DNA of 64,000 nucleotides from an uncultured Deferribacteraceae bacterium. Its GTDB lineage: Bacteria > Chrysiogenota > Deferribacteres > Deferribacterales > Mucispirillaceae. Location: positions 1 to 64,000 of the forward strand of contig CAMRCY010000002.1 in assembly GCA_947041165.1 (NCBI GenBank), read 5' to 3'. The notes beneath the pieces were generated by a model. It had not been told where the DNA came from and did not search any database. It worked only from the letters and a program-made list of their open reading frames with translations. A program made the translations under genes and the position numbers. Below are positions 10,031 through 64,000 of the stretch, one piece after another (positions within the stretch are counted from its first letter, which is position 1; every line of letters begins with the position of its first letter).

Positions 10031-10157
10031 AATAATTGTACCCCTTTAAATTTAGACATAAACACACTAGATAAACTAGAATATTATCATTATATCTACT
10101 TTTAATCAAGTAGCAAATAGGATAAATAATTAATCATAATAAACAGATAAGATACAT

Positions 10158-10382
10158 ACACTTGTTAAGTCTACATATCTTTAAAGTGACAAATAAATAA
10201 TTATATAAAACAGATGTAATAGACACACTTGTTAAGTCTACATATCTTTAAAGTGACAAATAAATAATTATATAAAACAGATGTAATAGACACACTTGTT
10301 AAGATTGTTTATCTTAATACTGATAATTAATTTATAGTTGAAAATTGATAAAACAGGTACTAATATTAAGATTATTTATCTT
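10158..10382. repeat. Tandem repeat, 67 bp unit, running into the DUF4340 stop codon
   Basis: Two nearly identical 67 bp units start at 10158 and 10225 (acacttgttaagtctacata...). A third, diverged unit starts at 10292. A fourth begins about 10359 and overlaps the 3' end of the DUF4340 gene. The string ttaagattrtttatctt at 10299-10315 and 10366-10382 matches at 16 of 17 positions, exactly 67 bp apart, and the right-hand copy contains the gene's stop codon. The array fills most of the 341 bp spacer 10031-10371. No other feature was seen in it. Confidence 0.85.
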
Positions 10383-11244
10383 CAAACATATCCTTTACTG
10401 TTCTGTCTACCACAAGAATAGATCCACCCATTGGCACAAAATAATGTGTTTCATCTTTACCAACAAAAAAGTAGCGTGTGTATGATTTTTTAGCAAGCTT
10501 GATACTTATTGAACCCTCTGGTTTTGGTGATAATTTTATTTTATCATCAACGATAGCTGATGCTCTGATACTTATAATCTCATCAATAATTTCTCTTCCT
10601 TTATCCTCTAACAACATATTGCCACGCAGAAGCCAACCGTTACTCTGCTTAGATATAAGGTACATTGAGTTATTGAAAACACTCTCAACCGATTTCACAT
10701 CTTCGTAACTAACATTAAATATATTTAAGTTTACAAAATCTTCTGCCGAATTAGGAAAATGTGCTCTTATTGAATTACTCACCATAATAACATCATTATC
10801 ACTGCTTTCAACATTTGCATAAACCATTTCACAGCCTTCAACATCGTTACCAAAATTGATAATAATAGGTTTATTGCCGTAAAAAATCTCTATAGATTGG
10901 TGTTTGCCGATACCATATTTTAACTCATCTTTTGCATTAGATATTCTATCAACAACAACTAAATCACTCAACCTTACTATCAATTTAACAATAGCTGATT
11001 GATCTGCATTCCATACAGCAGGAACAACAATTTTCCACGCATTATCACCACTACGTTCAGCTTCGATCACGACTTTACCACAAGAATATTTTAAATATTT
11101 TGATGTTGTCGGATCTTTATATATTAATTTCTTAAAAACTTTATCTTTTATTTTACGGTAAGGGAAAAAATAAGCACCAATCATTATAACTAAAAATAAC
11201 ATAAGATATACATATGTCGAATTCATAAACTGCTCCATATCCAT
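10372..11244 (-). CDS. DUF4340 domain membrane-anchored protein
   Basis: A 290 aa protein with one N-terminal membrane segment at about residues 11-27 (YVYLMLFLVIMIGAYFF), followed by a probably periplasmic part. Residues about 65-180 resemble DUF4340: YGIGKHQSIEIFYG, then a repeated Y-x-N and DFVNLNIFNVS stretch. DUF4340 proteins are often found with gliding or ABC-type export (GldG-like) systems, but no such genes are adjacent. It begins 17 bp after the hypF stop and is probably co-transcribed with trkA, trkH and hypF. The function is unknown. Confidence 0.6.
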   Translation of the reverse strand: MDMEQFMNSTYVYLMLFLVIMIGAYFFPYRKIKDKVFKKLIYKDPTTSKYLKYSCGKVVIEAERSGDNAWKIVVPAVWNADQSAIVKLIVRLSDLVVVDRISNAKDELKYGIGKHQSIEIFYGNKPIIINFGNDVEGCEMVYANVESSDNDVIMVSNSIRAHFPNSAEDFVNLNIFNVSYEDVKSVESVFNNSMYLISKQSNGWLLRGNMLLEDKGREIIDEIISIRASAIVDDKIKLSPKPEGSISIKLAKKSYTRYFFVGKDETHYFVPMGGSILVVDRTVKDMFEDK

Positions 11245-11261
11245 TTCGTTAATGGATAAAA

Positions 11262-13760
11262 TTATAAATTAAATTCTATATCATACAGATAATAATATAT
11301 CTGTCCAAGCGATATAGATGAATCATTAGTAGGAATTACATTATTCCTATAAACCATTAAATCTCTTTCTTCAAGAGTTTTAGTAATACCATTTAAGAGT
11401 ATCTTGTTTTGGAAAACACCACCCGATAAAGATATATGTTTTACGCCACTCTCTTGTGATAAATTTATTAAAATATCTGCTACCACTTTAATAAAACCGT
11501 TATGAAATTTTGCTGATATAACGGATATTAACTCTCCGTCATAAAGATCAGATATCAACTTATTAAAAACATCTTTAAAATCTAACACGCCATCATCTGT
11601 CGTAAAATGATAATACCCTTGCTCGCTCTTATCTACAATAGATTCAAGTTTTATAGCAAGTGAGCCTTCATACTCATTATCTCTTTCACACAGAAGAAGT
11701 GAGCCTACTGCCTCAAATAATCTTCCAACTGATGAGGTATATATACTATTTATATATTTATCGGATATTTGCTTTACTATATTAATCTCGTTATCACTCA
11801 AGCTTAACCTTTCTTTTAAAAGAGAGTCTGCTGTAACTAATAAATTCATACTGGAAAGGTATGATATCAACATCATATACGGTGATTTAACTGATGCATC
11901 CATAGATGGCTGGGTATACTTTTTAAGTGAAAAAACTCTTGAAATTTTACGATCAATCTTTAAAAAGAATTCTCCACCCCAAGCAAGATTATCTAACCCT
12001 AAACCGAAACCATCAAGAACAACTCCTATCGAGTCACCGACATATTTATGTTCTGCTAACACAGATAAAAAGTGTGCGACATGATGTTGAACTTTAACAA
12101 CATTAACCGATAAATCTTTAGCAATCTTATCTGCATATTTTGAGGACATGAAGCCATCGTGACAATCTCTCACTATAACTTCTGGTTTTATGCCTAACAC
12201 TGATGATAGCTTTTTGTACGTTTCATCGAAATAATCATATGTCGCAATACTCTCTAAATCACCTATATATTGTGATAAAAAAGCGTACCCATTTTTATAT
12301 AACGCTAAAGTGGATTTAAGATCTGCACCTACTGCAAAAATATCTGTGTCAATTATCTTATCAAAATCAATCGGGTATGGAGCATACGATCTTGATCTTC
12401 TTATAAATTGATAACCATCATCTAACGATGCTATCACTGAATCATCAAGCCTAGTATGTATAACTCGATTGTGATCTAAAAATATATCGGTGAAATTTGA
12501 TAGTTTTTTCATAGCCTCATTAATATCTGATATCACAGGCTCATCACCGATATTAGCCGATGTTGCTATTAAAAAATCTGAGTTATAAAAATTGAAAAGA
12601 AGTTTGTGTAAAGGAGTGTAGGCGATCATTATACCTAAACTATTATTACCGTTTTCAATATGCTGATGAACGCCTGCAAGATCGCTAGAATTATTATTAC
12701 TTTCAGCGTTGTCATTGTCATTGTAATTGTCATTGTCATTGTCATTGTCATTGCAATTCTTATTGTTGTCTGCACCACTTAGATTGTGAAAACTATTATT
12801 ATCCTCGGCACTACTATTCTCATTTACACAATCACCAAAACAAATAGGATTTACAAATTTAGATATGCCAAGTTTCTCAAAATCAATATTATTTAAAATC
12901 ACAATCGGAGCTTCCCCCGAGGTCAACAACTCTCTTTCAACAGTCGATATATTTTCAACATATTTATCTATAACCGAGATATCACGAACCATCACTGCGA
13001 ACGGTTTTGTTGGACGTTTTTTTAACTCTCTCAATTTAAGAATAGCTTCATCATTATAAGCTGATAGAATAAAATGAAATCCAGATAAACCTTTTATCGC
13101 AACTATCTCACCGTTATTAATTCTCTCTGCTGTTCTCTTAATCGCTAATTTATTATCAGTTATAACATCATTACCATCGTATAAAGTTAGTGAAGGACCA
13201 CAATCTGCACAAGCATTCGGCTCTGCATGAAAACGTCTACTATCACTATCTTCATACTCATCTCTACATTTATCGCATAATATAAAATCAGACATAGTAG
13301 TATTAGATCTATCGTACGGTATAGATTTTATTATTGAATATCGAGGGCCACAATTTGTACAGTTTGTAAATGGATATAGATAACGTCTATTGCTACTATC
13401 AAAAATATCCTGCTCGCACTCTTTACATATTGCAAGATCAGGAGAGATCAATGTTAGACCTTCGGTGACATCACTTTTGAGAATTGAAAACCCTTCAAAT
13501 ATTTCATTCTCTATCTCTGAACTCTCAATAGATTTGATAACTGCATTGATAGGTTTATTGACTTTTATATAACCGACAAAATCTTCGGCTGTGTGAATGC
13601 TCTCAACATTTAGAGCGATCTCTAAACCGATTGAAGAGTTTTTAACGTAACCGTTTAACACAAATCTGTCTGCACTTCTTTTGATAAAAGGTCTAAAGCC
13701 GACGCCTTGAACAACTCCTTTAACAACGATCCTACACGTTATCATCTCTTCCAAAACCAT
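11262..13760 (-). CDS. hypF: Carbamoyltransferase HypF ([NiFe]-hydrogenase maturation)
   Basis: Makes thiocarbamate on HypE from carbamoyl phosphate for the CN ligands of [NiFe] hydrogenase. It has 832 aa. The domains are acylphosphatase (about 7-90, VQGVGFRPF), two zinc fingers made of four CxxC pairs (112-187), YrdC-like (about 205-400) and the Kae1-like C-terminal domain with VQHHVAHF and LSGGVFQNK. A low-complexity Asn/Asp-rich stretch at about residues 300-372 interrupts the YrdC-like domain. The start overlaps the last 19 bp of trkH. No hydrogenase or other hyp genes are in the window, so the partners must lie elsewhere. Confidence 0.96.
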   Translation of the reverse strand: MVLEEMITCRIVVKGVVQGVGFRPFIKRSADRFVLNGYVKNSSIGLEIALNVESIHTAEDFVGYIKVNKPINAVIKSIESSEIENEIFEGFSILKSDVTEGLTLISPDLAICKECEQDIFDSSNRRYLYPFTNCTNCGPRYSIIKSIPYDRSNTTMSDFILCDKCRDEYEDSDSRRFHAEPNACADCGPSLTLYDGNDVITDNKLAIKRTAERINNGEIVAIKGLSGFHFILSAYNDEAILKLRELKKRPTKPFAVMVRDISVIDKYVENISTVERELLTSGEAPIVILNNIDFEKLGISKFVNPICFGDCVNENSSAEDNNSFHNLSGADNNKNCNDNDNDNDNYNDNDNAESNNNSSDLAGVHQHIENGNNSLGIMIAYTPLHKLLFNFYNSDFLIATSANIGDEPVISDINEAMKKLSNFTDIFLDHNRVIHTRLDDSVIASLDDGYQFIRRSRSYAPYPIDFDKIIDTDIFAVGADLKSTLALYKNGYAFLSQYIGDLESIATYDYFDETYKKLSSVLGIKPEVIVRDCHDGFMSSKYADKIAKDLSVNVVKVQHHVAHFLSVLAEHKYVGDSIGVVLDGFGLGLDNLAWGGEFFLKIDRKISRVFSLKKYTQPSMDASVKSPYMMLISYLSSMNLLVTADSLLKERLSLSDNEINIVKQISDKYINSIYTSSVGRLFEAVGSLLLCERDNEYEGSLAIKLESIVDKSEQGYYHFTTDDGVLDFKDVFNKLISDLYDGELISVISAKFHNGFIKVVADILINLSQESGVKHISLSGGVFQNKILLNGITKTLEERDLMVYRNNVIPTNDSSISLGQIYYYLYDIEFNL
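12709..12754. repeat. In-frame GTCATT hexanucleotide repeat inside hypF
   Basis: About seven copies of gtcatt (one changed to gtaatt) encode alternating Asn-Asp on the minus strand. The repeat lies in the roughly 70-residue insertion of HypF. Because the unit is 6 bp, changes in copy number would keep the reading frame. Confidence 0.9.
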
Positions 13761-52613: not shown

Positions 52614-52637
52614 AAAAGGGAGAGTTTACACTCTCCC
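52614..52637 (-). terminator. Rho-independent terminator of the encapsulin operon
   Basis: On the minus strand gggagag and ctctccc form a perfect 7 bp stem with loop tgtaaa, followed by TTTT. It lies 181 bp beyond the encapsulin stop codon, after the 30 bp repeat array. On the plus strand no T run follows, so it is oriented for the encapsulin unit. Confidence 0.8.
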
Positions 52638-52693
52638 CTAAATATTAAATAAAAAAAGAAAATCACGTTTAAGCAAACGCAAAAAAAAATCAA

Positions 52694-52834
52694 CTTTAAA
52701 TCTATCACTAAAAATTAGTTTTAAATTTATATTTCAAAACATATCAATTTTTAAATCTACTTTTCTAATACATTCAATTTCTAAATCTACTTTTCTAATA
52801 TAGCCTAATTTCTAAATCTATTTCTCAAATACAA
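52694..52834. repeat. Tandem repeat, about 30 bp unit, running into the encapsulin stop codon
   Basis: Clear units at 52745, 52775 and 52805 read caatttctaaatctactttt then ctaatacatt. The third contains the encapsulin stop codon and last codons (ctatttctcaaatac). Two more diverged units precede them from about 52694. The array extends downstream from the gene end. Confidence 0.85.
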
Positions 52835-53630
52835 CTATTGCTTCTGGTTTTTTAATTCTTGGAAGAACAGTTTCTATTATACGAAACGAATGATTTAAAT
52901 CTTTCTGCTCTAAATATGCAGTAACTATATCTTGTCCGATTGCTAAATCAATATACTGTGGCTCTGAACAGATAAGAACTGCTTGTTGTCCTTTTAATAT
53001 AGGAACTCTAAATAAACCACCTAACTGCTTCGCAATTCTGTCAACCTCTAAAAGTCCTGTGCCTGTTTGAATTCTTTGAAGATTAACATATAACTCTGGA
53101 CTTACACATAAAAAAAAGTGTCCGATTAATCCTTTGCTGATAATCATGTTAACGCCTTTAACGATATCCATAAATGCGTTTTCGCCCTCTTTCCAATCTG
53201 ATATTGCAACTTTTTGAACACCAGGTGCATTCATTATTCCATCAGTTTTTAGAAACTTGTTACCGAAAAATATCAACGAATCTTCAAGATTAGTAATCTT
53301 ATGTGTTGCCTCAATTACCGCTGTTAAGTCTAGTGGTAAACCTGTTGAGAAATGATTTTCAATATCTCTCCATAATATACTAAAATCTGCATATATTTGT
53401 GGAAGTTCTACAAATGTTCTTCCAGTTGTCTTAACTATTCCATTCTCAAATTCTTCATTTCTAACCATTTTATCGTAAGAAACATTAATAGCACCTGAAC
53501 CTAAAGGTCCATAAACTGTTAAAAATTTTCTACCATTTAAATGGTTTCTAGCTGTCTCAACTACAATCGAATCAATCTGTTTCCAGAAATCTTTTTTTAT
53601 AGGAGCCCCATCCCTTGAAAGGTAATCCAT
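52818..53630 (-). CDS. Family 1 encapsulin shell protein
   Basis: Self-assembling HK97-fold nanocompartment protein, 270 aa, the normal length for Linocin_M18/encapsulin. The N-terminal MDYLSRDGAPI, the WKQIDSIVVETARNHLNGRKF helix, GRTFVELPQIYADFSILWRDI and GLLEVDRIAKQLG are familiar positions. The C-terminus ends VVFEK. It lies 14 bp after the ferritin-like cargo gene, the standard cargo-then-shell order. It encloses the cargo by binding its C-terminal peptide. The shell probably sequesters iron oxidised by the cargo. Confidence 0.96.
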   Translation of the reverse strand: MDYLSRDGAPIKKDFWKQIDSIVVETARNHLNGRKFLTVYGPLGSGAINVSYDKMVRNEEFENGIVKTTGRTFVELPQIYADFSILWRDIENHFSTGLPLDLTAVIEATHKITNLEDSLIFFGNKFLKTDGIMNAPGVQKVAISDWKEGENAFMDIVKGVNMIISKGLIGHFFLCVSPELYVNLQRIQTGTGLLEVDRIAKQLGGLFRVPILKGQQAVLICSEPQYIDLAIGQDIVTAYLEQKDLNHSFRIIETVLPRIKKPEAIVVFEK

Positions 53631-53644
53631 AATATTCTCTCCTC

Positions 53645-54136
53645 CTATTTTTTAAGTAAACTGCCTACTGTTAATTTATTCACTAATACAGATTTATCTT
53701 CTGATTTTTCATCAGAACCACAACCACAATCTGCTTCACCGCCACAACAAGATGATTTATCACCATGTGTGTGCCCATCATCACCGTGTGAGTCATCACA
53801 TGATGCGATTAACTTACTTGGGATCTCTCCAGATTTAATACCTAGATCTTCCATCATCTCTCTTACTTCAGATTCTCCACCTGCAAAAAACTCTGCTTCT
53901 TTAGGATCTAAATATCTAAGTAAAGTTGTTAACTCACCAACGTGAGCTTTCTCTTCATCTCTAATATCACCTAAAACAGTTTTCACAACTATATCATCTG
54001 TTGCAAGAATATGAGCTTCATATAAATATATAGCCTCTAACTCTGCTGCTATATCAAGTCTAATAGCTTGTATTAGCTCTTGTTTAGTAATCTTACGATT
54101 CACATTGCCTGCGAATGGATTTGCAAAACTTGCCAT
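53645..54136 (-). CDS. Encapsulated ferritin-like cargo with Cys/His-rich linker
   Basis: A 163 aa cargo protein. Residues 18-98 form two antiparallel helices. E32, E34, Y39, E62 and H65 align with, and carry the same numbers as, the ferroxidase residues of Rhodospirillum EncFtn. The C-terminal LTVGSLLKK is a classic encapsulin loading peptide. Residues 112-140 form a linker with four adjacent or spaced cysteine pairs and histidines (C113, H117, H122, H124, C130, C131, C137, C139), which should bind metal and is unusual for this family. A GGAGG ribosome site precedes the ATG. It is followed by the shell gene. Confidence 0.93.
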   Translation of the reverse strand: MASFANPFAGNVNRKITKQELIQAIRLDIAAELEAIYLYEAHILATDDIVVKTVLGDIRDEEKAHVGELTTLLRYLDPKEAEFFAGGESEVREMMEDLGIKSGEIPSKLIASCDDSHGDDGHTHGDKSSCCGGEADCGCGSDEKSEDKSVLVNKLTVGSLLKK

Positions 54137-54208: not shown

Positions 54209-55363
54209 TTATTCTGCTACCTGATTTAGCAAATATCCGTACCCCTCTGATACCATTTTAGATTTTGGAACAAATCTAAGTGAAGCACTATTAATACAGT
54301 ATCGCATCCCACCACTTTCTTTAGGTCCGTCATCAAATAGATGTCCTAAATGCGAGTTACTACCACTGCTTTTAACCTCAGTTCTTTCCATTCCAAAACT
54401 TTTATCAGTACTATCTGTTATTAAGTTTTTATCAATTGGTTTTGAAAATGATGGCCATCCTGATGATGAAGCAAATTTATCCTTCGATAAAAATAACGGC
54501 TCTCCAGTTGTCACATCAACATATATCCCTTCTGCTTTATTATCCCAATACTCATTTTTAAACGGTTGCTCTGTCTTATTTTCTTGAGTAACATCATATT
54601 GTAATTTTGTTAATTTTGATTTTAACTCTTCATCACTCAACTTTTTATACTCCTTTGATGGAGAAGTTGAAACTTCATCACTACTTGTTTTAGAACTTAT
54701 ATTGTCTTTAGATTTCTTTGCATCTTCAAACTCTGCTTTACCTATATGACAATAGCCATCAGGATTTTTATCTAAATAATCTTGATGATAATCTTCTGCT
54801 TTATAGTAATTATTAACTGTCATCACTTCAATCGCAATAGGCTTTTTATAATCCTTTGAAACTCTTTTTACAAAATTTTCTGCAATCTTTTTCTCTACAT
54901 CGCTATCATAATAAATACCTGTTCGATACTGACGTCCTACATCATTGCCTTGCTTGTTAAGTGATGTTGGATCGACAACTTTTTTATACATATCAAGTAT
55001 AAAATCTAGTGATACTTTCGTTGGATCATAAACTATCCTAACACCCTCTGAAGCATCTGATGAGCCTGATGTAACATCTTTATATGTTGGATCAGCTGTT
55101 TTAGAATTAACATATCCAACATCTGTAAACACAACACCATCTATATATTGAAAGTATTTTTCAACACCCCAAAAACATCCACCAGCCACTATTATCGTAT
55201 CATATTTGTCAGGAGAAAAATCTTCGTATTTCATATCTTTATTCACCACAGCCGTATATTCAGGCTCACTCTTTAAATCGTTTGCGTAACTACTGCTATC
55301 TCGTTTACAACTAGCAAATAGTGATAACATTATTCCTAACATTAATACATATATTATTTTCAT
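54209..55363 (-). CDS. MsrA-MsrB fusion methionine sulfoxide reductase, predicted lipoprotein
   Basis: Repairs both stereoisomers of oxidised methionine in exported proteins, 384 aa. The lipobox LFASC puts the lipid-anchored Cys at 19. MsrA domain (about 52-215): [11 protein letters not shown] with catalytic C63, and [10 protein letters not shown]. MsrB domain (about 240-384): [17 protein letters not shown] (H338, H341) and RYCINSASL (C356, N358). An electron donor such as DsbD is not in the window. It lies 72 bp upstream of the encapsulin cargo gene and may share its transcript. Confidence 0.96.
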
Positions 55364-55428: not shown

Positions 55429-56022
55429 TTATTTAGACACCTGATTTAATAAATATCCGTACCCTTCTGATACCATTTCTGCTTTAGGAATAAATCTTAA
55501 CGATGAACTATAAAGACAGTATCTTTTCCCACCTTTATCTTTAGGCCCATCGTAATATAAATTTCCTAAATGTGAGTTTGTAATACTGTTTTTTACATCT
55601 GTTTTATTTACGCCATCTTTATTTGACAAAATATTTATTACAAAATTTTTATCAATTGGTTTTGTAAATGATGGCCAACCAGTTCCTGAATCGAATTTAT
55701 CTTTAGATAAAAATAACGGCTCTCCTGATATCACATCTACATATATACCCTCTGCCTTATTATCCCAATACTTATTTTCAAACGGTTTCTCTAACTTAAT
55801 TTTTTCCGTAATATCACTCTGTAATTTAGTTAACTTTGATTTTGAAACTTCATCACCCATCGCCTTATATCCCTTTTTTGCAGATACAGGAACTTTATCG
55901 TTACTAACACCAGTCGTAGCCTTTAACTCACTATTTAATTCATTTGCTAAAACAGTTTGTTCAAAACCTACAACAGATAGTGACAACGATATTCCTAACG
56001 CTAATACATATATTGTTTTCAT
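55429..56022 (-). CDS. Degenerate MsrB-like paralogue of the neighbouring MsrAB
   Basis: A 197 aa protein with a signal peptide (cleavage likely near residue 27) but no lipobox. Its sequence follows the MsrB half of the adjacent MsrAB closely, including [18 protein letters not shown] and GWPSFTKPIDKN, and even its signal peptide (MKxIYVLxLGIxLSL). C169 in RYC remains, but the catalytic histidine is Asn (SHLGNLY, N154) and the Asn after the Cys is Tyr (Y171). It is therefore probably an inactive or altered MsrB. It lies 65 bp upstream of msrAB. Confidence 0.85.
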   Translation of the reverse strand: MKTIYVLALGISLSLSVVGFEQTVLANELNSELKATTGVSNDKVPVSAKKGYKAMGDEVSKSKLTKLQSDITEKIKLEKPFENKYWDNKAEGIYVDVISGEPLFLSKDKFDSGTGWPSFTKPIDKNFVINILSNKDGVNKTDVKNSITNSHLGNLYYDGPKDKGGKRYCLYSSSLRFIPKAEMVSEGYGYLLNQVSK

Positions 56023-56110: not shown

Positions 56111-57853
56111 CTATCCGAAACACTTATTAACAAAAATCAGATCGCTATCACCACCACTATCAACCGAAATACTTAACCCGTTATTTATATCTGTTGTAGT
56201 ATTATTCACTAGCTCAAACATATCTATATCTAAATTATCTTCTACACTCACCGTAGGTAAACCATCTGCTGTACTTGGAGGCATAGGATTAAAATACCTG
56301 CTACACGATGTTGCAATTTCAAATTTTTCTACAATATTATATAGATAATAAACTAGATTATTATATGTGATAAAACTTCCTATCCGTGGACTTCCTGATA
56401 TTGTGCTTTCATATGATTGAGAGCCATATAGTGTAATATAATCTGTGCTATCAAAACTGATTATATTATTGACATTTTCTTTACACTCAGTATCATTATC
56501 CAACCCATCACACTCTTGATGTTCATATTTATAATGAAACACAAAATATAACTCTTTCTTATTTACTCCACCAATTGACACAAAATCTAAATTATTATAT
56601 ATAGGATAAGTTTTAATAATTCTCCATAAACCATTTTCATATACACTAACTTCTGAGCCTATCGGTGCAAAATTATTATCTGATGTGCTATAAATGTAAT
56701 GTATCGCACCATCAATAATATCTACGCTAAATGCTGTAACTTTTAAATCTGTAGGAGGTGTAATTGTTACATAATCAAGAGTTGTGTTATCGATAAAATC
56801 ATCAACTATAATTTTTAATAATTTACTTTCGTTATCAATGTATGATGTTATCACTGTGCCGTTATCATAAATTTTTATAATAGGTTGTGAAACATTTTCA
56901 ACGCCATTAAAATAATCTACAAAACTTGCAACTTCATCAACAGTTCCATTATCTTTCTTAAACATGCTAAGGTTATCATCAATATCAACATATGCTACAA
57001 ATATATCTTGAGCTTTATTTGTGGCTATTGTTGAGTAAATAGCGTTAATACCTAGACCGTTACCTTCTGTTAAAGTTCTACCTTTTACTGTTTTATTTAG
57101 TTCATAGACTTCAATTTTTTCATCATCCTTGATGTATGTCATCGTTGCATTATCACCGAGTGGTGCAACACTATGATATCCTGTTGTCTTTCGTGCAGGA
57201 GCTGGCAGAGCAGTACTATTATCAATCTCCTCATCTCTCCAACTTCCATTAACTAAAGTATAACCTTTTATGATACTTCTATTATCACTATCTGTGATAG
57301 TGGCGATTGAGTAAAGTGTTCCTGAGTTTGTTACTGTTGCCGAGAGTCCTGTGTTTTCCATATACTTATCATTAGACATAGTGTTTGCAAGCTCGACATT
57401 AATTCCCTTAAGATTAGTCGCTCTATTTTCTTCAATAAACTCCACATCTGTTTGGTTATAATAATATTCACCATCATTATAATATAATTTCATACCTATA
57501 GCTTGTTGATCATCATTCTCATCTAGAATTATCTCAACTCCAAAATAATTAAAATAAGTTTGAGATTCCTCATGATATCCATTTGCATAAATTGCTTTTG
57601 TATAATCAATCGAGTCTACATAATGTCCGATAATTAATTTCTTGTTTGTCACATCATAACCATATATCTGACCTGAAGGAAGCTCTACTGTTACATTTCC
57701 ACCTAACACAACAAAATACCACTCATTACTTGCAGCTAATACTCTAAATGTGTCGCCTGGATCTTCTTCACCACTATAAGAACACGATGTAGTGAATGTA
57801 ATAATTATCAACAACATATATATATAAAATTTCTTAAACACAATTATCTCCAA
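56111..57853 (-). CDS. Large predicted lipoprotein with one shared repeat module
   Basis: 580 aa. The N-terminus has a hydrophobic signal and TTSC lipobox (Cys 24). Residues about 60-150 contain one copy of the AIY...YFGVEI...DVEF module shared with the two lipoproteins at 59.7-64 kb. The remaining 430 residues are rich in Tyr, Asp and Asn, with repeating beta-strand-like segments that suggest a propeller. No enzyme motif was found. It is likely an outer-membrane or surface lipoprotein. It is followed after 88 bp by the MsrB paralogue. Confidence 0.6.
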   Translation of the reverse strand: MEIIVFKKFYIYMLLIIITFTTSCSYSGEEDPGDTFRVLAASNEWYFVVLGGNVTVELPSGQIYGYDVTNKKLIIGHYVDSIDYTKAIYANGYHEESQTYFNYFGVEIILDENDDQQAIGMKLYYNDGEYYYNQTDVEFIEENRATNLKGINVELANTMSNDKYMENTGLSATVTNSGTLYSIATITDSDNRSIIKGYTLVNGSWRDEEIDNSTALPAPARKTTGYHSVAPLGDNATMTYIKDDEKIEVYELNKTVKGRTLTEGNGLGINAIYSTIATNKAQDIFVAYVDIDDNLSMFKKDNGTVDEVASFVDYFNGVENVSQPIIKIYDNGTVITSYIDNESKLLKIIVDDFIDNTTLDYVTITPPTDLKVTAFSVDIIDGAIHYIYSTSDNNFAPIGSEVSVYENGLWRIIKTYPIYNNLDFVSIGGVNKKELYFVFHYKYEHQECDGLDNDTECKENVNNIISFDSTDYITLYGSQSYESTISGSPRIGSFITYNNLVYYLYNIVEKFEIATSCSRYFNPMPPSTADGLPTVSVEDNLDIDMFELVNNTTTDINNGLSISVDSGGDSDLIFVNKCFG

Positions 57854-58015
57854 TTTTTAAAACAATTAAATGATAGCTACCATAATAATATAGTAACCAA
57901 TCGAACTTATCACAATAGATAAATATAGAACAAACTGAGAGTATCTAATAAATCAATCTATTAGACCAAACTGCTGACTTATTAGACAACAGTTGTTGAA
58001 ATGTTTTGACTGTAA

Positions 58016-58039
58016 TTTTCATAAATTAATTTATGAAAA
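58016..58039. promoter_or_regulatory. Perfect 24 bp palindrome
   Basis: Ttttcataaatt is followed by its exact reverse complement aatttatgaaaa. It lies between the GLUG lipoprotein stop (58100) and the start of the next lipoprotein (57853). It could be an operator or an AT-only terminator. A weaker inverted repeat (tctaata...tattaga, 57944-57965) lies beside it. The rest of this 246 bp spacer shows nothing else. Confidence 0.5.
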
Positions 58040-58099
58040 GAGAACCACTTAATAATAGAACCATGATACCTATATTAAGTTCAATGAAGTCTACTTTGT

Positions 58100-59374
58100 C
58101 TACTCATCAGGTTCTGTTGCTTTTTTACAAGGCCCAATTAATCTCTCAACAATAACTTTATCATCTATATCTAATATCCATTTAAGGACAGGACATTTAT
58201 CTTGCATTACCCATATATTATTAAAATCCCACTGATTAAAATTATACGAGTTATTATATTGTTTAGAATCCATCTCAGCACCTGCATCATTTGATTTAGG
58301 CTTACCGATAGCTTTCAAATCACCATCTCCTAAATAATAGTTATCAACATAAACGCTATGAGTATTATTATCCACTTTGCCGATAATTTTCCCAACTGTT
58401 TCAACAGATGCTGATGGAGGAAATAATTTGCCGTAGCTATGTGTATTCATTAAAGCAATCTCTTCTTGCACATTGCCTATAATTCCTCCAAGACTTCCCC
58501 TGCCCATAAGTTTTGCTAAGTTTGAAGAGTTCTCAACTTCGCACCTAAAGCAAGCACCAATTATACCACCTGCAAATAATCCTCTTATTAATTGTCCATT
58601 ATTTTGAGAGAGTGAAACCGATGTGTCCATACCATAACCTGCTATGCCACCTACGCTCATGTCACCACTAATCTCTCCAAGATTAACTGAGTTAGTTATA
58701 TCTAACCCTGTAGCGTGCCCAACAATTCCACCAACTCCATTTCCACGACCATAAACCTTGCTGAGATTTGTAGCAAACTTGATCGTTACATTATCTGCAA
58801 CACCTACAATGCCACCAACTTGATCTTCTGAACCTGTAACAGTAACATTGCTATTTCTAACATTTATTAGTTTAGCGTTTTGTGCCCATCCAACTATTCC
58901 ACCTACCGATTGTTTCCCCTTAATACTGCCATTTTTTATCGTTAAATCCTTTACTGTTCCATTATCAAGAAGTCTCCTGATTAAGCCAACCTTGTCATAA
59001 ACGATACTTATATATATATTAGAAATAGCTTTATTGTTGCCATCTAATGTACCTTGAAATACCGCCATACCATACATAGATTTATTATCCAGATCTATAT
59101 CATTAACAAGAATAATTGTATCCTTATCGTAAGTTATTGAATCATTATCATTTGGCCTTTTTATTATCCATGCAAAATGAGTTGCATCAGTTACATAATA
59201 CGTTCTACTCTCTTCATCATATCTCGGTTCATTGATAGTTTTGCCATCCCATGGAAGTGATGGAAGATTGTATGGATCGTTAACTCCACCTGCATCTGAA
59301 TCATCAAAACCAAATATACCACATGATATTAATAAAAAAGATAAACTTAAAATAACAAGCCTTTTATAAAACAT
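58100..59374 (-). CDS. Predicted lipoprotein with GLUG repeats
   Basis: 424 aa. Lipobox LLISC with Cys at 18. Residues about 110-310 contain five to six GLUG-type repeats of the pattern VGGIVG...N...G, for example VGGIVGWAQNAKLIN, VGGIVGVADNVTIKF, VGGIVGHATGLD and VGGIAGYGMD. These form a beta-solenoid in other surface proteins. No protease motif is visible. It is probably surface-exposed, but its partner is unknown. The neighbours are also predicted lipoproteins on the same strand. Confidence 0.75.
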   Translation of the reverse strand: MFYKRLVILSLSFLLISCGIFGFDDSDAGGVNDPYNLPSLPWDGKTINEPRYDEESRTYYVTDATHFAWIIKRPNDNDSITYDKDTIILVNDIDLDNKSMYGMAVFQGTLDGNNKAISNIYISIVYDKVGLIRRLLDNGTVKDLTIKNGSIKGKQSVGGIVGWAQNAKLINVRNSNVTVTGSEDQVGGIVGVADNVTIKFATNLSKVYGRGNGVGGIVGHATGLDITNSVNLGEISGDMSVGGIAGYGMDTSVSLSQNNGQLIRGLFAGGIIGACFRCEVENSSNLAKLMGRGSLGGIIGNVQEEIALMNTHSYGKLFPPSASVETVGKIIGKVDNNTHSVYVDNYYLGDGDLKAIGKPKSNDAGAEMDSKQYNNSYNFNQWDFNNIWVMQDKCPVLKWILDIDDKVIVERLIGPCKKATEPDE

Positions 59375-59449
59375 AAGCTATACAAACCTCTTCATAACAT
59401 AAATAATAAAACAACAGATATCTTCGTACTGAAATAACCTGCTCTTTAT

Positions 59450-59523
59450 AAAACATAAACTCCAAAAATATAAACTGCAAAAACATAAACTACAAAAACA
59501 TAAACTGCAAAAACCTAAGCATT
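59450..59523. repeat. Tandem repeat, five 15 bp units
   Basis: Units of aaaaacataaactgc lie between the GLUG lipoprotein and the 775 aa lipoprotein gene (spacer 59375-59702). The string ctytttataaaacataa also occurs at the GLUG gene start (about 59361-59376) and just before the array (about 59443), suggesting a duplication of the gene's 5' end. The spacer also holds the terminator listed next. Confidence 0.85.
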
Positions 59524-59573
59524 GATAATCTAAATCATTAATTAAAGATATAACCAAACTTAACTATTCAACT

Positions 59574-59617
59574 TAATAAGAAAATAAGTAGCAAGCACAT
59601 TCAAGTACTCGCTACTT
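59574..59617 (-). terminator. Rho-independent-like terminator after the 775 aa lipoprotein
   Basis: On the minus strand aagtagcgag pairs with cttgctactt (10 bp, one G-T) around a 12-base loop and is followed by attttctt. It lies 86 bp after the stop of the lipoprotein gene at 59703. Confidence 0.75.
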
Positions 59618-59702
59618 ACTTATATTATTAATACACTATAGATTTTTAAACTAAACTATAAAAAACAACTTCTTTACTTATTACACTCAAACTTGTTTTT
59701 AA

Positions 59703-62030
59703 TTAAAATAAACCAGGAGTAACAGCTAATTTAAATGCTCCACCATCTTTCATATTCAATTTCATAACTTTAAGTTTGCCATCATCTGAAATATAAGATA
59801 TATGGATATCACCTGTTGGTAAAACTTTATCTGTATCCGTTGCATAAGGATCTAAATTAACAGCTTTAACTTTATCAGAGTTATCTACTATAGTGATACC
59901 TGGAACTACTACTGTACTGCCTATAGGTATCTCAATACTTACTGTCTTTTCACCTGCAAAAGCTGCTAAACTGCCACTCTCTGTAATTCTTAATGGTGTT
60001 AAAATTAACTTACTAGCCTTGTTATATAAAAAGTAAAGATTATCTCCCTTTGATATAAGTTTTGCATCAACAAAACCAGCACCCGTTATCGTAGGTAATA
60101 TCTGCTTCGTCCATGCAGGCTTAACACTGTTTGAGTTATAGAGATATATATCAGTCCCACTACTTACCGTAGTAACAGCGTATAATCTTCCACCTGCATA
60201 AGCTAGTGAAATAGTATTAGTGTCAACACTATCAACAGGAGGCAATCCAGTGCCTGTTATCTCTGTGCCCCATGCACCAGGTGTAGGTTTAACATCAAGA
60301 AAAGATGTAGACACTGAGAACTTATTACCACCCTCAGTAGTTAGACCAGCTGTAAACAATTCATTTTTATCTACAACTATTGTTTGAACAATATCTTGAT
60401 CATGCTTGATAACATACTCACCACCTGTGATTATGGTTTCTTCACCATCAACACCTTCAGTACTTCCACTACTTGCAACATAAAGCTTATCGTTAGCCGT
60501 TACTGTTACTAAGCCAGTAACCTTGTCTGCCCTTACATTACGTTTTACATCTATAAAACTACCGCTATCTATTGATCTACCGCTATCTATTGAACTCACA
60601 GGAGATAACCCAGGTTTTAATTTTAAGGTTGTAACCTTCTTAGTAGTATTATTTATTACTGTAGCTAAAATATCTTTGCCTATAGATTGTAATGATGAAC
60701 TAATAACCTTATATCCAGCAGTTGTGCTTGAGTCCCACTTTGGATTATCAGATTTATCTATTGTATACGATAGTGTAATATTATCAGCACTTGTTTGAGA
60801 AAGAACATAAGTTACATTATCAGCTATAAGAGTTGAAATTTCTGAGTTTGGCACAATCACTTCATTACCACCAACAACTTTAGCAGTACCGCCTTCCATA
60901 CCAACAAACCTTGTAGCTAGTACAGAATCATCTTCATCAACATATTCAACATGTTGAGTGTGATCCCAAAATTGCACAACATTCTCTTTATTTTTAAAAT
61001 ATATATTTAATTTTTTATTTTCATTGGTATTTCCAGATATTTTAATACCTACATATTTATCTTCTAATTCACCTGAATTAGCATCTTTATATATCGCTTT
61101 AGTAGGATCAGTAAGATTATCTTGACGCAGATAAGTAAATAAAGCTTTCGTATCTGTACTGTTCGTGATAGTTCCATTATCATGAATATTAGCACCGCTA
61201 TCTTCTAATGCAAATTCATAACCATCTTTTCTAGCATAATCGATAAACGTCTTAGGAAAAACATCTACATTAGCATGGTCTTCATCAAATCTGACATCAG
61301 TACCTTTACTCCAAAACTTAGATTCGTTATTATGATTATTGAAATAAAATCTTAGATCCTTGTTATCTCCCTCTCCAACAATTTCTACTCCTAAATAATT
61401 ATTACCTTCAGATTTATAAATTGCTTGATCAGCTACTTTAACCCCAACCGGAATATCAGTATATTCAAATATCACTATGCTTTCATCATGATAATAAACA
61501 AGAGTACCTTGTTTTAATAAATTGACATAAGAATCATCTTTTGTATAAATATATTTTGTTTTAGGTGCTAAATCTAAAAATTCTACCTGATTTACAGAAA
61601 CGTTATCTTTCTGTGAACGTCTCAGATTGATATCATCTGTATTAGTCCAGTAATAGCCACCACTGACTTCTTCGTCAAAAACAAATTCTAAAACTTTATT
61701 TTTACCTGTGCCGATAATATTCACAACAAAAAATCTATTTAAAGTTTCTCCAGGTAGTTGAGCATTATAAATCGCCTTAGAGTTATCACCCTCAAACTGC
61801 TCTACATAACTATAAACCGCAAAAGCTTTATCTTTAGCCATTATAGAACCGTTATCAACTAAGTGAAGCGTTGTATTATCATATATCGGTGAACGATAAT
61901 TATCCATCGCTGCGAACTCAGTGAAGTTATCAAACGAGCTTGCCCCAGGTGCAGCTTCTTGTGTGCAGGATATTAAAAAAGTTGCCGTAACTAATCCTAG
62001 AATTTTAATTTTATCAAATCGCTTAAACAT
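59703..62030 (-). CDS. Large predicted lipoprotein with three copies of a shared module
   Basis: 775 aa. Lipobox FLISC with Cys 22. Residues about 55-165, 166-275 and 279-378 are three copies of a module with a KAIY core, then a G-V-E-I type strand, F-Y-F, and F-W with a DV-x-F ending (for example YLGVEI...FYFNN...FWSKGTDVRF). The following 400 residues contain repeated beta-strand segments rich in Asp, Ser and Thr, possibly a propeller. I do not recognise the module. It is paralogous to the partial gene at 62358. Confidence 0.65.
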   Translation of the reverse strand: MFKRFDKIKILGLVTATFLISCTQEAAPGASSFDNFTEFAAMDNYRSPIYDNTTLHLVDNGSIMAKDKAFAVYSYVEQFEGDNSKAIYNAQLPGETLNRFFVVNIIGTGKNKVLEFVFDEEVSGGYYWTNTDDINLRRSQKDNVSVNQVEFLDLAPKTKYIYTKDDSYVNLLKQGTLVYYHDESIVIFEYTDIPVGVKVADQAIYKSEGNNYLGVEIVGEGDNKDLRFYFNNHNNESKFWSKGTDVRFDEDHANVDVFPKTFIDYARKDGYEFALEDSGANIHDNGTITNSTDTKALFTYLRQDNLTDPTKAIYKDANSGELEDKYVGIKISGNTNENKKLNIYFKNKENVVQFWDHTQHVEYVDEDDSVLATRFVGMEGGTAKVVGGNEVIVPNSEISTLIADNVTYVLSQTSADNITLSYTIDKSDNPKWDSSTTAGYKVISSSLQSIGKDILATVINNTTKKVTTLKLKPGLSPVSSIDSGRSIDSGSFIDVKRNVRADKVTGLVTVTANDKLYVASSGSTEGVDGEETIITGGEYVIKHDQDIVQTIVVDKNELFTAGLTTEGGNKFSVSTSFLDVKPTPGAWGTEITGTGLPPVDSVDTNTISLAYAGGRLYAVTTVSSGTDIYLYNSNSVKPAWTKQILPTITGAGFVDAKLISKGDNLYFLYNKASKLILTPLRITESGSLAAFAGEKTVSIEIPIGSTVVVPGITIVDNSDKVKAVNLDPYATDTDKVLPTGDIHISYISDDGKLKVMKLNMKDGGAFKLAVTPGLF

Positions 62031-62260
62031 CTCTGTATTCTCTCTCTTTTTTCTTTCTCATCAGTTTTAGACATATATCAACATCAATGTTCTATCGTTA
62101 AACCAATAGTTATATTTAATAATATAAGTGAATGATACTATAATGTCAAAAAAAAAATCAATTATTTGATTTTTTTTATTCTCAAAACATTATTAATTAC
62201 ACTATTACTATATATTTACTCGATAATAAATAAGTTTTATGATATTCAACAGATCGTAAA

Positions 62261-62293
62261 TTAAAAAGAGGATGAGCATAATACCCACCCTCT
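62261..62293 (-). terminator. Terminator after the partial lipoprotein gene
   Basis: On the minus strand agagggtggg pairs with ctcatcctct over ten positions (three G-T pairs), loop tattatg, followed by a TTTTT run. It lies in the 327 bp spacer 62031-62357. The rest of that spacer is AT-rich with no gene that I can see. Confidence 0.8.
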
Positions 62294-62357
62294 CTATTAT
62301 AATTAGTAATTTATAGTTACTAAAATTTTAACTCTTTACTTTTTACTCTTTAGCAAA

Positions 62358-64000
62358 CTAAAGAGGCATTGTATATGATTTACTGTAAAGCATTGGATTG
62401 CTGTATTTAAGATCTTCTGGAGATCCATCTCCAACATAAACTTTAAATATTCCCATACCAGGTAGCGCAACTACACCAGGAACAATCGCAGCCTCTTCTC
62501 CAACAGGATCACTCTCAGCTAATTTTGTAACAGTATTTGCCGTAGTATCAACATGATAAACCTCAGTCATAGCATCTGTTCTTGTAAAGTAAACAGTTGT
62601 CTCATCAGCTACTATAGAAGTAGTTACCGCATTAGATACAACTGAACCTACAACTTCAGTCCATACATAAATATTATCTCTAGGATCGTTATCTTTATAC
62701 ATTTTCTCACCACTAACAACATACAATGCAGTACCTATTGCAAATAGTTTGATATCAGCAGTAGTAGCAGGAAGATTTCCAGTTATATTTGACGGAACAG
62801 ACTCTGCAGTCATTTTATTAATCACAGGAGTAGTTGCGTTCATAATACCACCGATAAAAACATCTGTACCTATTGTAACTACTGATTTAGGATCCATAGC
62901 TTTAGTATCAGAATATAAATTTTTACCTGTCTGAACACCGTCAACAGTTACTTTACTAAGTGCTGCTTGATTAGAGGCTAAAGTTGCAATAAAGAAACCA
63001 TCGTTATCATTAATTGATCCAGCACCTATTGCATAACTTTCACATAAAACTTTCTGGTTTGAAGAAACTAGTGATATCGGATCTCCATTAGATTTAAAGA
63101 ACTCAACATTTGCAAATCCTGCATCCACTCCATCTTGAACAGCTAAGAACACATCATCACCGATAAATTGTAACGAAGTAGATATCATATTATCAACGAT
63201 TGTTCCAGTAACATTTGAGCTTGTTGTAGTTACTGTTTTACCGTTTATAACATTTTTAAATAATGTACCACCAGAATTAAGAGTCTCATTATCTGCAAGT
63301 GTGTATGCGATATTATCTTTATACACTGTTGAAACAGCTCCATTAGTTTTTACATTTGCCTGTGTAAGTGTTGCAGTTGGAATTGAATTATCTGTTACTC
63401 CAAATCCACCGTTAATAGTTCTTGTAGCTAACAGAACACCGTTAGCTGATGCGAATTTAACATCTGCCATATTTGCCCAGTAAGCACCAGTAGCAGTTGT
63501 ACTATTATCAAAATAGAAGTTTAATTTAGCGCCATCAACTTCAACACCGAAATATTCATCTGCATCAGGATTTTTATAAACAGCTGTAGTTGATGTTTTT
63601 TCCTCTGCGACTGTATAAGTTTTAGTATTAAAAAGTATATCGCCAGCTGTAGGAGTTGTATCACCAAGTTTAGTTAATGTTCCTTCTTTTGTAATAACAA
63701 GTTGATACGACTTACCAGCAACATTCTCTTTGAAACTTTGTTCAGGAAGAGATGTCCCTGCTTCTGTAGTAAACACAACTGTATCAGCTGTCGCAAAATA
63801 TGTAGGAGCTGAAGCCGTACCATTTACATAAAATTTTATCACTCTTGGACTTGCTGTATTTACTAACTCAATACCTAAAAACTCATTAGGGTCTAATACA
63901 TTTGTGCTTTGATACACAGCATGAGTTTTATTATCACTAAGTTTATTGTTGTATGTAAATAAAATATGATTACCTGCATCAACCACATTACCATCAATTA
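62358..64000 (-). CDS. Large predicted surface protein, 5' end beyond the window
   Basis: The reading frame stays open to the right edge, so the start is outside. A GTG at 63986 is inside the module (its preceding residues read IDGN) and is not the real start. At least 547 residues are visible. Two copies of the shared module come first (for example EFLGIELV...IKFYVNG, EYFGVEVDG...YFDNS...YWANMADVKF). A Ser/Thr-rich part with beta-strand repeats follows, aligning loosely with the C-terminal half of the 775 aa lipoprotein. A signal or lipobox is expected upstream. Confidence 0.6.
   Translation of the reverse strand, partial: IDGNVVDAGNHILFTYNNKLSDNKTHAVYQSTNVLDPNEFLGIELVNTASPRVIKFYVNGTASAPTYFATADTVVFTTEAGTSLPEQSFKENVAGKSYQLVITKEGTLTKLGDTTPTAGDILFNTKTYTVAEEKTSTTAVYKNPDADEYFGVEVDGAKLNFYFDNSTTATGAYWANMADVKFASANGVLLATRTINGGFGVTDNSIPTATLTQANVKTNGAVSTVYKDNIAYTLADNETLNSGGTLFKNVINGKTVTTTSSNVTGTIVDNMISTSLQFIGDDVFLAVQDGVDAGFANVEFFKSNGDPISLVSSNQKVLCESYAIGAGSINDNDGFFIATLASNQAALSKVTVDGVQTGKNLYSDTKAMDPKSVVTIGTDVFIGGIMNATTPVINKMTAESVPSNITGNLPATTADIKLFAIGTALYVVSGEKMYKDNDPRDNIYVWTEVVGSVVSNAVTTSIVADETTVYFTRTDAMTEVYHVDTTANTVTKLAESDPVGEEAAIVPGVVALPGMGIFKVYVGDGSPEDLKYSNPMLYSKSYTMPL

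What the first reader, a model, noticed from the sequence alone, without database searches (positions are those of the whole stretch)
52818..54136. Encapsulin cargo with a Cys/His-rich linker between ferritin domain and loading peptide
The sequence shows a family 1 encapsulin and an EncFtn-type cargo with E32, E34, Y39, E62 and H65 in place and LTVGSLLKK at the end. Between them, residues 112-140 hold five cysteines (including a CC pair and a CxC) and three histidines in a Gly/Asp-rich flexible stretch. Known EncFtn linkers are plain tethers. Inside the shell this linker could bind Fe, Zn, Ni or Cu, or carry a redox centre, so the compartment may do more than store iron.
Basis: partly seen in the sequence, partly recalled or inferred. 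Interest (0 to 1): 0.8.

Follow-up and report, generated by a model that had tools for sequence, protein, structure and literature searches.

The report
Encapsulin ferritin with metal-binding-type linker
In one genus of uncultured Deferribacteraceae, the iron-oxidising protein packed inside a protein nanocage carries an extra cysteine- and histidine-rich acidic stretch, seen in none of about 100 other targeted relatives sampled, that most likely holds metal ions next to the stored iron; no metal has been shown.

Summary
Window 54136-53645 (-) encodes a 163-aa encapsulated ferritin (EncFtn) with the ferroxidase residues in place and LTVGSLLKK at the C-terminus; 53630-52818 (-) encodes a family 1 encapsulin shell. 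Between ferritin domain and loading peptide lies an acidic, predicted-disordered linker with C113, C130, C131, C137, C139 and H117, H122, H124. Of 146 EncFtn homologues compared, 105 carry a targeting peptide. Only the four species of this genus have any Cys in the tail (5,5,5,4); the other 101 have none, with tails of at most 34 aa against 56-69 here. The sister genus lacks the insert, so it arose on the stem of this genus. Within the genus the linker evolves fast, and one species lost all three of those His. Four of five Cys columns are invariant and the fifth changes only to His: suggestive of ligand retention, weak statistically (p 0.12; 0.02 if Cys/His are pooled). Best reading: a SlyD-tail-like metal-binding tether inside the shell, possibly aiding iron capture or release. 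Metal identity and function are undemonstrated. It is a new variant of a known system. The genus has no detected classical ferritin but a conserved double-Bfd protein, so iron release is the natural function to test.

The parts
53645..54136 (-). Encapsulated ferritin-like cargo (EncFtn, NCBIfam EncB_fam), 163 aa
   Evidence: NF058679 152 bits against a cut-off of 90; phmmer and Foldseek to the P. furiosus EncFtn domain 5n5e and M. xanthus EncC
53816..54136 (-). Ferritin-like domain (residues 1-107) with ferroxidase residues E32, E34, Y39, E62, H65
   Evidence: Invariant in 21 aligned homologues; AF2 helices 18-45, 49-76, 79-97, block pLDDT up to 98; residues checked
53720..53800 (-). Cys/His-rich cluster of the linker, residues 113-139: C113, H117, H122, H124, C130, C131, C137, C139
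   Evidence: Sequence; only in this genus among 146 homologues; pLDDT <50 over residues 106-156
53648..53674 (-). C-terminal targeting (cargo-loading) peptide LTVGSLLKK, residues 155-163
   Evidence: Matches the family consensus LTVGSL (PMC11202242 Table 2); the only C-terminal copy in a long ORF of the genome
52818..53630 (-). Family 1 encapsulin shell protein, 270 aa
   Evidence: NF041155 253 bits against a cut-off of 100; PF04454 221 bits
54137..54208 (-). Intergenic region with GGAGG ribosome-binding site and conserved TATAAT (54180-54175); probable cargo-shell promoter
   Evidence: Nearly invariant across four species; promoter function inferred
52616..52639 (-). Intrinsic terminator-like hairpin downstream of the shell gene
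   Evidence: 10-pair stem with T-rich tail

Best explanation
This is a two-gene family 1 encapsulin iron-storage operon whose EncFtn cargo has gained, in one genus, about 40 residues between the ferritin domain and the loading peptide. The insert is a flexible, acidic Cys/His tether (net charge about -7) that binds metal ions inside the shell, in the manner of the disordered His/Cys/Asp/Glu tails of SlyD and similar metallochaperones. Many copies packed in each shell would give a high local concentration of thiol, imidazole and carboxylate ligands between the ferroxidase decamers and the shell wall. The likely use is to hold Fe(II), or a competing soft metal such as Zn, on its way to or from the ferroxidase centre. 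Shown: gene structure, domain, targeting peptide, linker composition, genus-wide presence, absence elsewhere in the sample. Inferred: encapsulation, metal binding, metal identity, physiological role.
For: Five Cys and three His in 27 residues against zero Cys in the tails of 101 targeted homologues. Present in all four species of the genus at one conserved locus. Cys retained while the rest drifts: 4 of 5 Cys columns invariant against 12 of 30 non-Cys columns, and the exception is Cys to His, a ligand-for-ligand change; the 12-residue deletion in G003 removes no Cys. Predicted disordered, as in the E. coli SlyD tail, described as unstructured and rich in His, Cys, Asp and Glu, with the protein binding up to 7 Ni(II) (PMC7055735). 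The genus has no strong ferritin/bacterioferritin match, so this operon is its probable main iron store.
Against: No metal is shown. Cys retention is not significant alone (p = 0.12; 0.019 if Cys/His are pooled, a choice made after seeing the data). Only four closely related species. G003 keeps only four Cys and one His in the linker, so no fixed binding geometry is conserved. No match of the linker to any Pfam family or solved metalloprotein.
Confidence: 0.5

Rival explanations
1. Redox linker: the Cys cluster carries a [2Fe-2S]-type centre or works as a thiol/disulfide couple that passes electrons to the ferric core, so the cargo brings its own iron-release electron carrier, analogous to the targeted Bfd-like ferredoxin of IMEF encapsulins.
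For: C-C-x(5,6)-C-x-[C/H] is kept in all four species, and 4 Cys or 3 Cys + 1 His are possible Fe-S or Zn ligand sets. Electron carriers for release from EncFtn shells are an open question (PMC11202242). The genus also has a double-Bfd protein and no strong ferritin/Bfr match. The shell keeps Trp at position 87, at or near the place of the T. maritima flavin site.
Against: No similarity to any Fe-S family; predicted disorder; spacing changes between species; the double-Bfd protein lies on another contig and has no terminal targeting motif.
Confidence: 0.17
2. Disulfide or structural role: linker cysteines cross-link cargo chains or cargo to shell under oxidising conditions, controlling loading or packing.
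For: Methionine sulfoxide reductase genes lie directly upstream in all four species, an oxidative-stress context; the shell has Cys175 and Cys221.
Against: Neither shell Cys is special to the genus (Cys221 in 76 of 109 shells, Cys175 in 14); the Msr proteins look like exported lipoproteins, so probably in another compartment; CC and CxC pairs plus His fit metal binding better.
Confidence: 0.1
3. Nearly neutral low-complexity expansion: a Gly/Asp/Ser/Cys-rich insert that arose once in the genus ancestor and drifts, acting only as a longer tether.
For: High dN in the linker, a 12-residue deletion in G003, and all of H117/H122/H124 lost there; retention of 4 of 5 Cys has a chance probability of 0.09 given the background rate.
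Against: Five Cys in 27 residues is far above background and absent from all other tethers sampled; the one lost Cys became His; no repeat structure suggests slippage.
Confidence: 0.2

Closest known systems
Encapsulated ferritin FLP-TP (R. rubrum / H. ochraceum EncFtn; M. xanthus EncB/EncC; clostridial and Brachyspira EncFtn)
   Same: Ferritin-like hairpin domain, ferroxidase residues, C-terminal LTVGSL-type targeting peptide, gene next to a family 1 shell
   Different: Known C-terminal disordered regions are about 10-40 aa (PMC11202242) and none of the 101 sampled outside the genus has Cys; here 56-69 aa with 4-5 Cys
SlyD / HypB-type metallochaperone His/Cys-rich tails
   Same: Disordered, acidic, His- and Cys-rich metal-ligand composition (PMC7055735)
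   Different: No FKBP/SlyD domain, no detectable homology; lies between a ferritin domain and a loading peptide. The genome's only FKBP_C match is a trigger-factor-like protein
IMEF encapsulin systems with targeted Bfd-like 2Fe-2S ferredoxin
   Same: A Cys-bearing module placed with an iron-storage cargo of an encapsulin
   Different: There a separate folded ferredoxin with an N-terminal targeting motif (PMC8346489); here an unstructured linker in the ferritin cargo itself
EMcapsulins (engineered metallothionein fused to the encapsulin lumen)
   Same: Cys-rich metal-binding peptide displayed in the encapsulin interior (PMC10713455)
   Different: Engineered, fused to the shell N-terminus; here natural and on the cargo

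Membership tests
Family 1 encapsulin shell | Match to the curated encap_f1 / Linocin_M18 models above cut-off | tested here: met
   NF041155 253 bits (cut-off 100), PF04454 221 bits (cut-off 24)
Encapsulated ferritin (EncFtn, FLP-TP) | Match to a curated EncFtn family model | tested here: met
   EncB_fam NF058679 152 bits over its cut-off of 90; TIGR04535 95 bits is below its cut-off of 125, PF22277 23.3 below 27
Encapsulated ferritin (EncFtn, FLP-TP) | Ferroxidase residues Glu32, Tyr39, Glu62, His65 in an alpha-hairpin fold | tested here: met
   Residues present and invariant; literature definition; AF2 model matches 5n5e and 7s8t
Encapsulated ferritin (EncFtn, FLP-TP) | C-terminal targeting peptide | tested here: met
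   LTVGSLLKK at residues 155-163, fits the family consensus
Encapsulated ferritin (EncFtn, FLP-TP) | Decamer assembly and encapsulation in the shell | not testable with these tools
   Inferred from homology and operon
SlyD | FKBP domain with IF domain and metal tail | tested here: not met
   No FKBP match in the cargo; only the tail composition is similar
Bfd-like [2Fe-2S] ferredoxin | Fer2_BFD domain | tested here: not met
   No PF04324 match in the cargo at E <= 1
Metallothionein-like metal-binding peptide | Measured binding of metal by the Cys cluster | not testable with these tools
   Needs purified protein

The most novel reading that the evidence does not exclude
The linker is a natural lumenal metal/redox module built into the ferritin cargo: it takes part directly in iron release (as thiol/Fe-S electron donor or Fe(II) acceptor), answering within one polypeptide how an EncFtn shell gives its iron back.
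Probability: 0.17. Interest if true: 0.75.

Novelty: new variant of a known kind. Interest (0 to 1): 0.45.

Why it matters
How iron leaves encapsulin stores has yet to be shown (PMC11202242). A cargo with a built-in ligand cluster, in organisms with no detected classical ferritin, offers a direct test: delete or mutate the cluster at constant length and measure iron uptake and release. It would also be a natural counterpart to engineered metallothionein-lined encapsulins.

Tried and rejected
Linker derived from a SlyD or other host protein: the genome has one FKBP_C match, a trigger-factor-like protein, and no second copy of the motif. Match of the linker to a solved metalloprotein: only a chance hit to a Kazal inhibitor, E 5. 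Replication-slippage origin: no direct or inverted repeats found. Genus-specific shell cysteines pairing with the linker: none. Second targeted cargo or ferredoxin: of seven TVGSL-like DNA matches, only the cargo's own is a C-terminal motif in a long ORF; one lies near the end of a very short ORF and the rest are internal or in tiny ORFs. Viral-contig relatives: none. Published description of Cys-rich EncFtn linkers: none found in the papers searched, which cover open-licence papers only.

Full report
Observation. The cargo scores 152 bits against NCBIfam EncB_fam (cut-off 90) and the shell 253 bits against encap_f1 (cut-off 100). The ferroxidase residues and the loading peptide are as described. 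The linker cysteines are C113, C130, C131, C137, C139 and the histidines H117, H122, H124. The window's proteins have 0.9% Cys; five in the 44-residue linker has a probability of about 5e-5, and no other 28-residue stretch among 40 checked window proteins holds more than four.

Where it occurs. The genome (G000, 2.14 Mb, 70 contigs) has one copy. The sister genus of the family (G004) and a more distant genus of the order (G031) have the same kind of operon with short Cys-free linkers. The ten genomes of genus g3 in the same family have neither cargo nor shell. Across loci from the genome-contig scan and surveys of 100, 391 and 399 genomes, I compared 146 distinct homologues. 105 carry a targeting-peptide motif; the four congeners have 4-5 Cys in the tail and the other 101 have none; congener tails are 56-69 aa, the others at most 34, and the median of all 105 is 26. 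This matches the published 10-40 aa range (PMC11202242). The sample leans to Firmicutes, Spirochaetes and Deferribacteres; proteobacterial and myxobacterial EncFtns are thinly covered.

When it arose. In trees of the shell and of the ferritin domain the four species form one clade (support 1.0 and 0.998), with G004 as nearest neighbour (support 0.47 and 0.87), then Brachyspira. The insert was therefore most simply gained on the stem of this genus. Nesting with Brachyspira suggests lateral spread of the operon, but I did not test this further.

Selection. The ferritin domain has dN 0.011-0.028 between species. The linker has dN 0.196-0.464 in all pairs but one (the closest pair, G000-G002, 0.019) and a 12-residue deletion in G003 that removes H117, H122 and H124. 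Even so, C113, C130, C131 and C137 are invariant and C139 is Cys or His. Four of five Cys columns against 12 of 30 other columns gives p = 0.12; pooling Cys and His as ligands gives p = 0.019, but that grouping was chosen after seeing the data. The honest reading is a loosely constrained linker whose metal ligands are the better-kept part.

Structure. AlphaFold2 gives the EncFtn hairpin with high confidence and pLDDT below 50 for residues 106-156; Foldseek finds 5n5e (P. furiosus EncFtn domain) and 7s8t (M. xanthus EncC). AlphaFold does not model metals, so metal-induced folding is not excluded. The linker is acidic (net charge -6 to -7).

Context. A TATAAT element and ribosome-binding site upstream of the cargo are almost invariant in the genus, and a terminator-like hairpin follows the shell. 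Upstream on the same strand are an MsrA-MsrB fusion and an MsrB, apparently lipoproteins, conserved in all four species. The genus has only a weak PF00210 match and no strong ferritin or bacterioferritin match, so the encapsulin is probably the main iron store. All four species also have a double Fer2_BFD protein, fused to a cupin in G000 and G002, not found in G004; among the 20 genomes searched only genus g3 has another, single and weaker match, in a long frame. It has no terminal targeting motif, and a link to the encapsulin is speculation.

Mechanism. The composition and disorder resemble the His/Cys/Asp/Glu tail of SlyD, a protein that binds several Ni or Zn ions (PMC7055735). I therefore judge a metal-holding tether in the shell lumen most likely (0.5). 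A redox or Fe-S role in iron release (0.17), a neutral expansion (0.2) and a disulfide role (0.1) remain open. No tool here can show metal binding.

Verdict. A real, genus-specific elaboration of a known system; moderately interesting and cheap to test.

Noticed in passing
L148:1243-1806 (G000:C17 near 10660-11220); L149-L151 in congeners: Genus-conserved protein with two tandem Bfd-like [2Fe-2S] domains, fused to a cupin in G000 and G002 and apparently without the cupin in G001 and G003; a candidate electron donor for iron release in a genus with no detected ferritin/Bfr.
   Followed up: partly
window 54209-55363 and 55429-56022 (-): MsrA-MsrB fusion and a second MsrB, both with signal-peptide-like N-termini (lipobox-like FASC in the first), directly upstream of the encapsulin operon and conserved in all four species.
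   Followed up: partly
window 56111-63986 (-): Run of large putative lipoproteins; three of them have homologues next to the encapsulin locus in congeners at 51-66% identity, much more diverged than neighbouring genes, and the one checked (56111-57853) has no Pfam match.
   Followed up: no
window 53645-54136 and 52818-53630 (-): Cargo and shell of this genus and its sister group with Brachyspira rather than with the other Deferribacterales EncFtns (about 50% identity), suggesting lateral transfer of the operon.
   Followed up: partly
L110:6423-9752 and 10098-11321 (G001): In G001 the DNA downstream of the shell differs from the window (large repeat-like lipoproteins), so a synteny break lies right after the encapsulin operon.
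   Followed up: no
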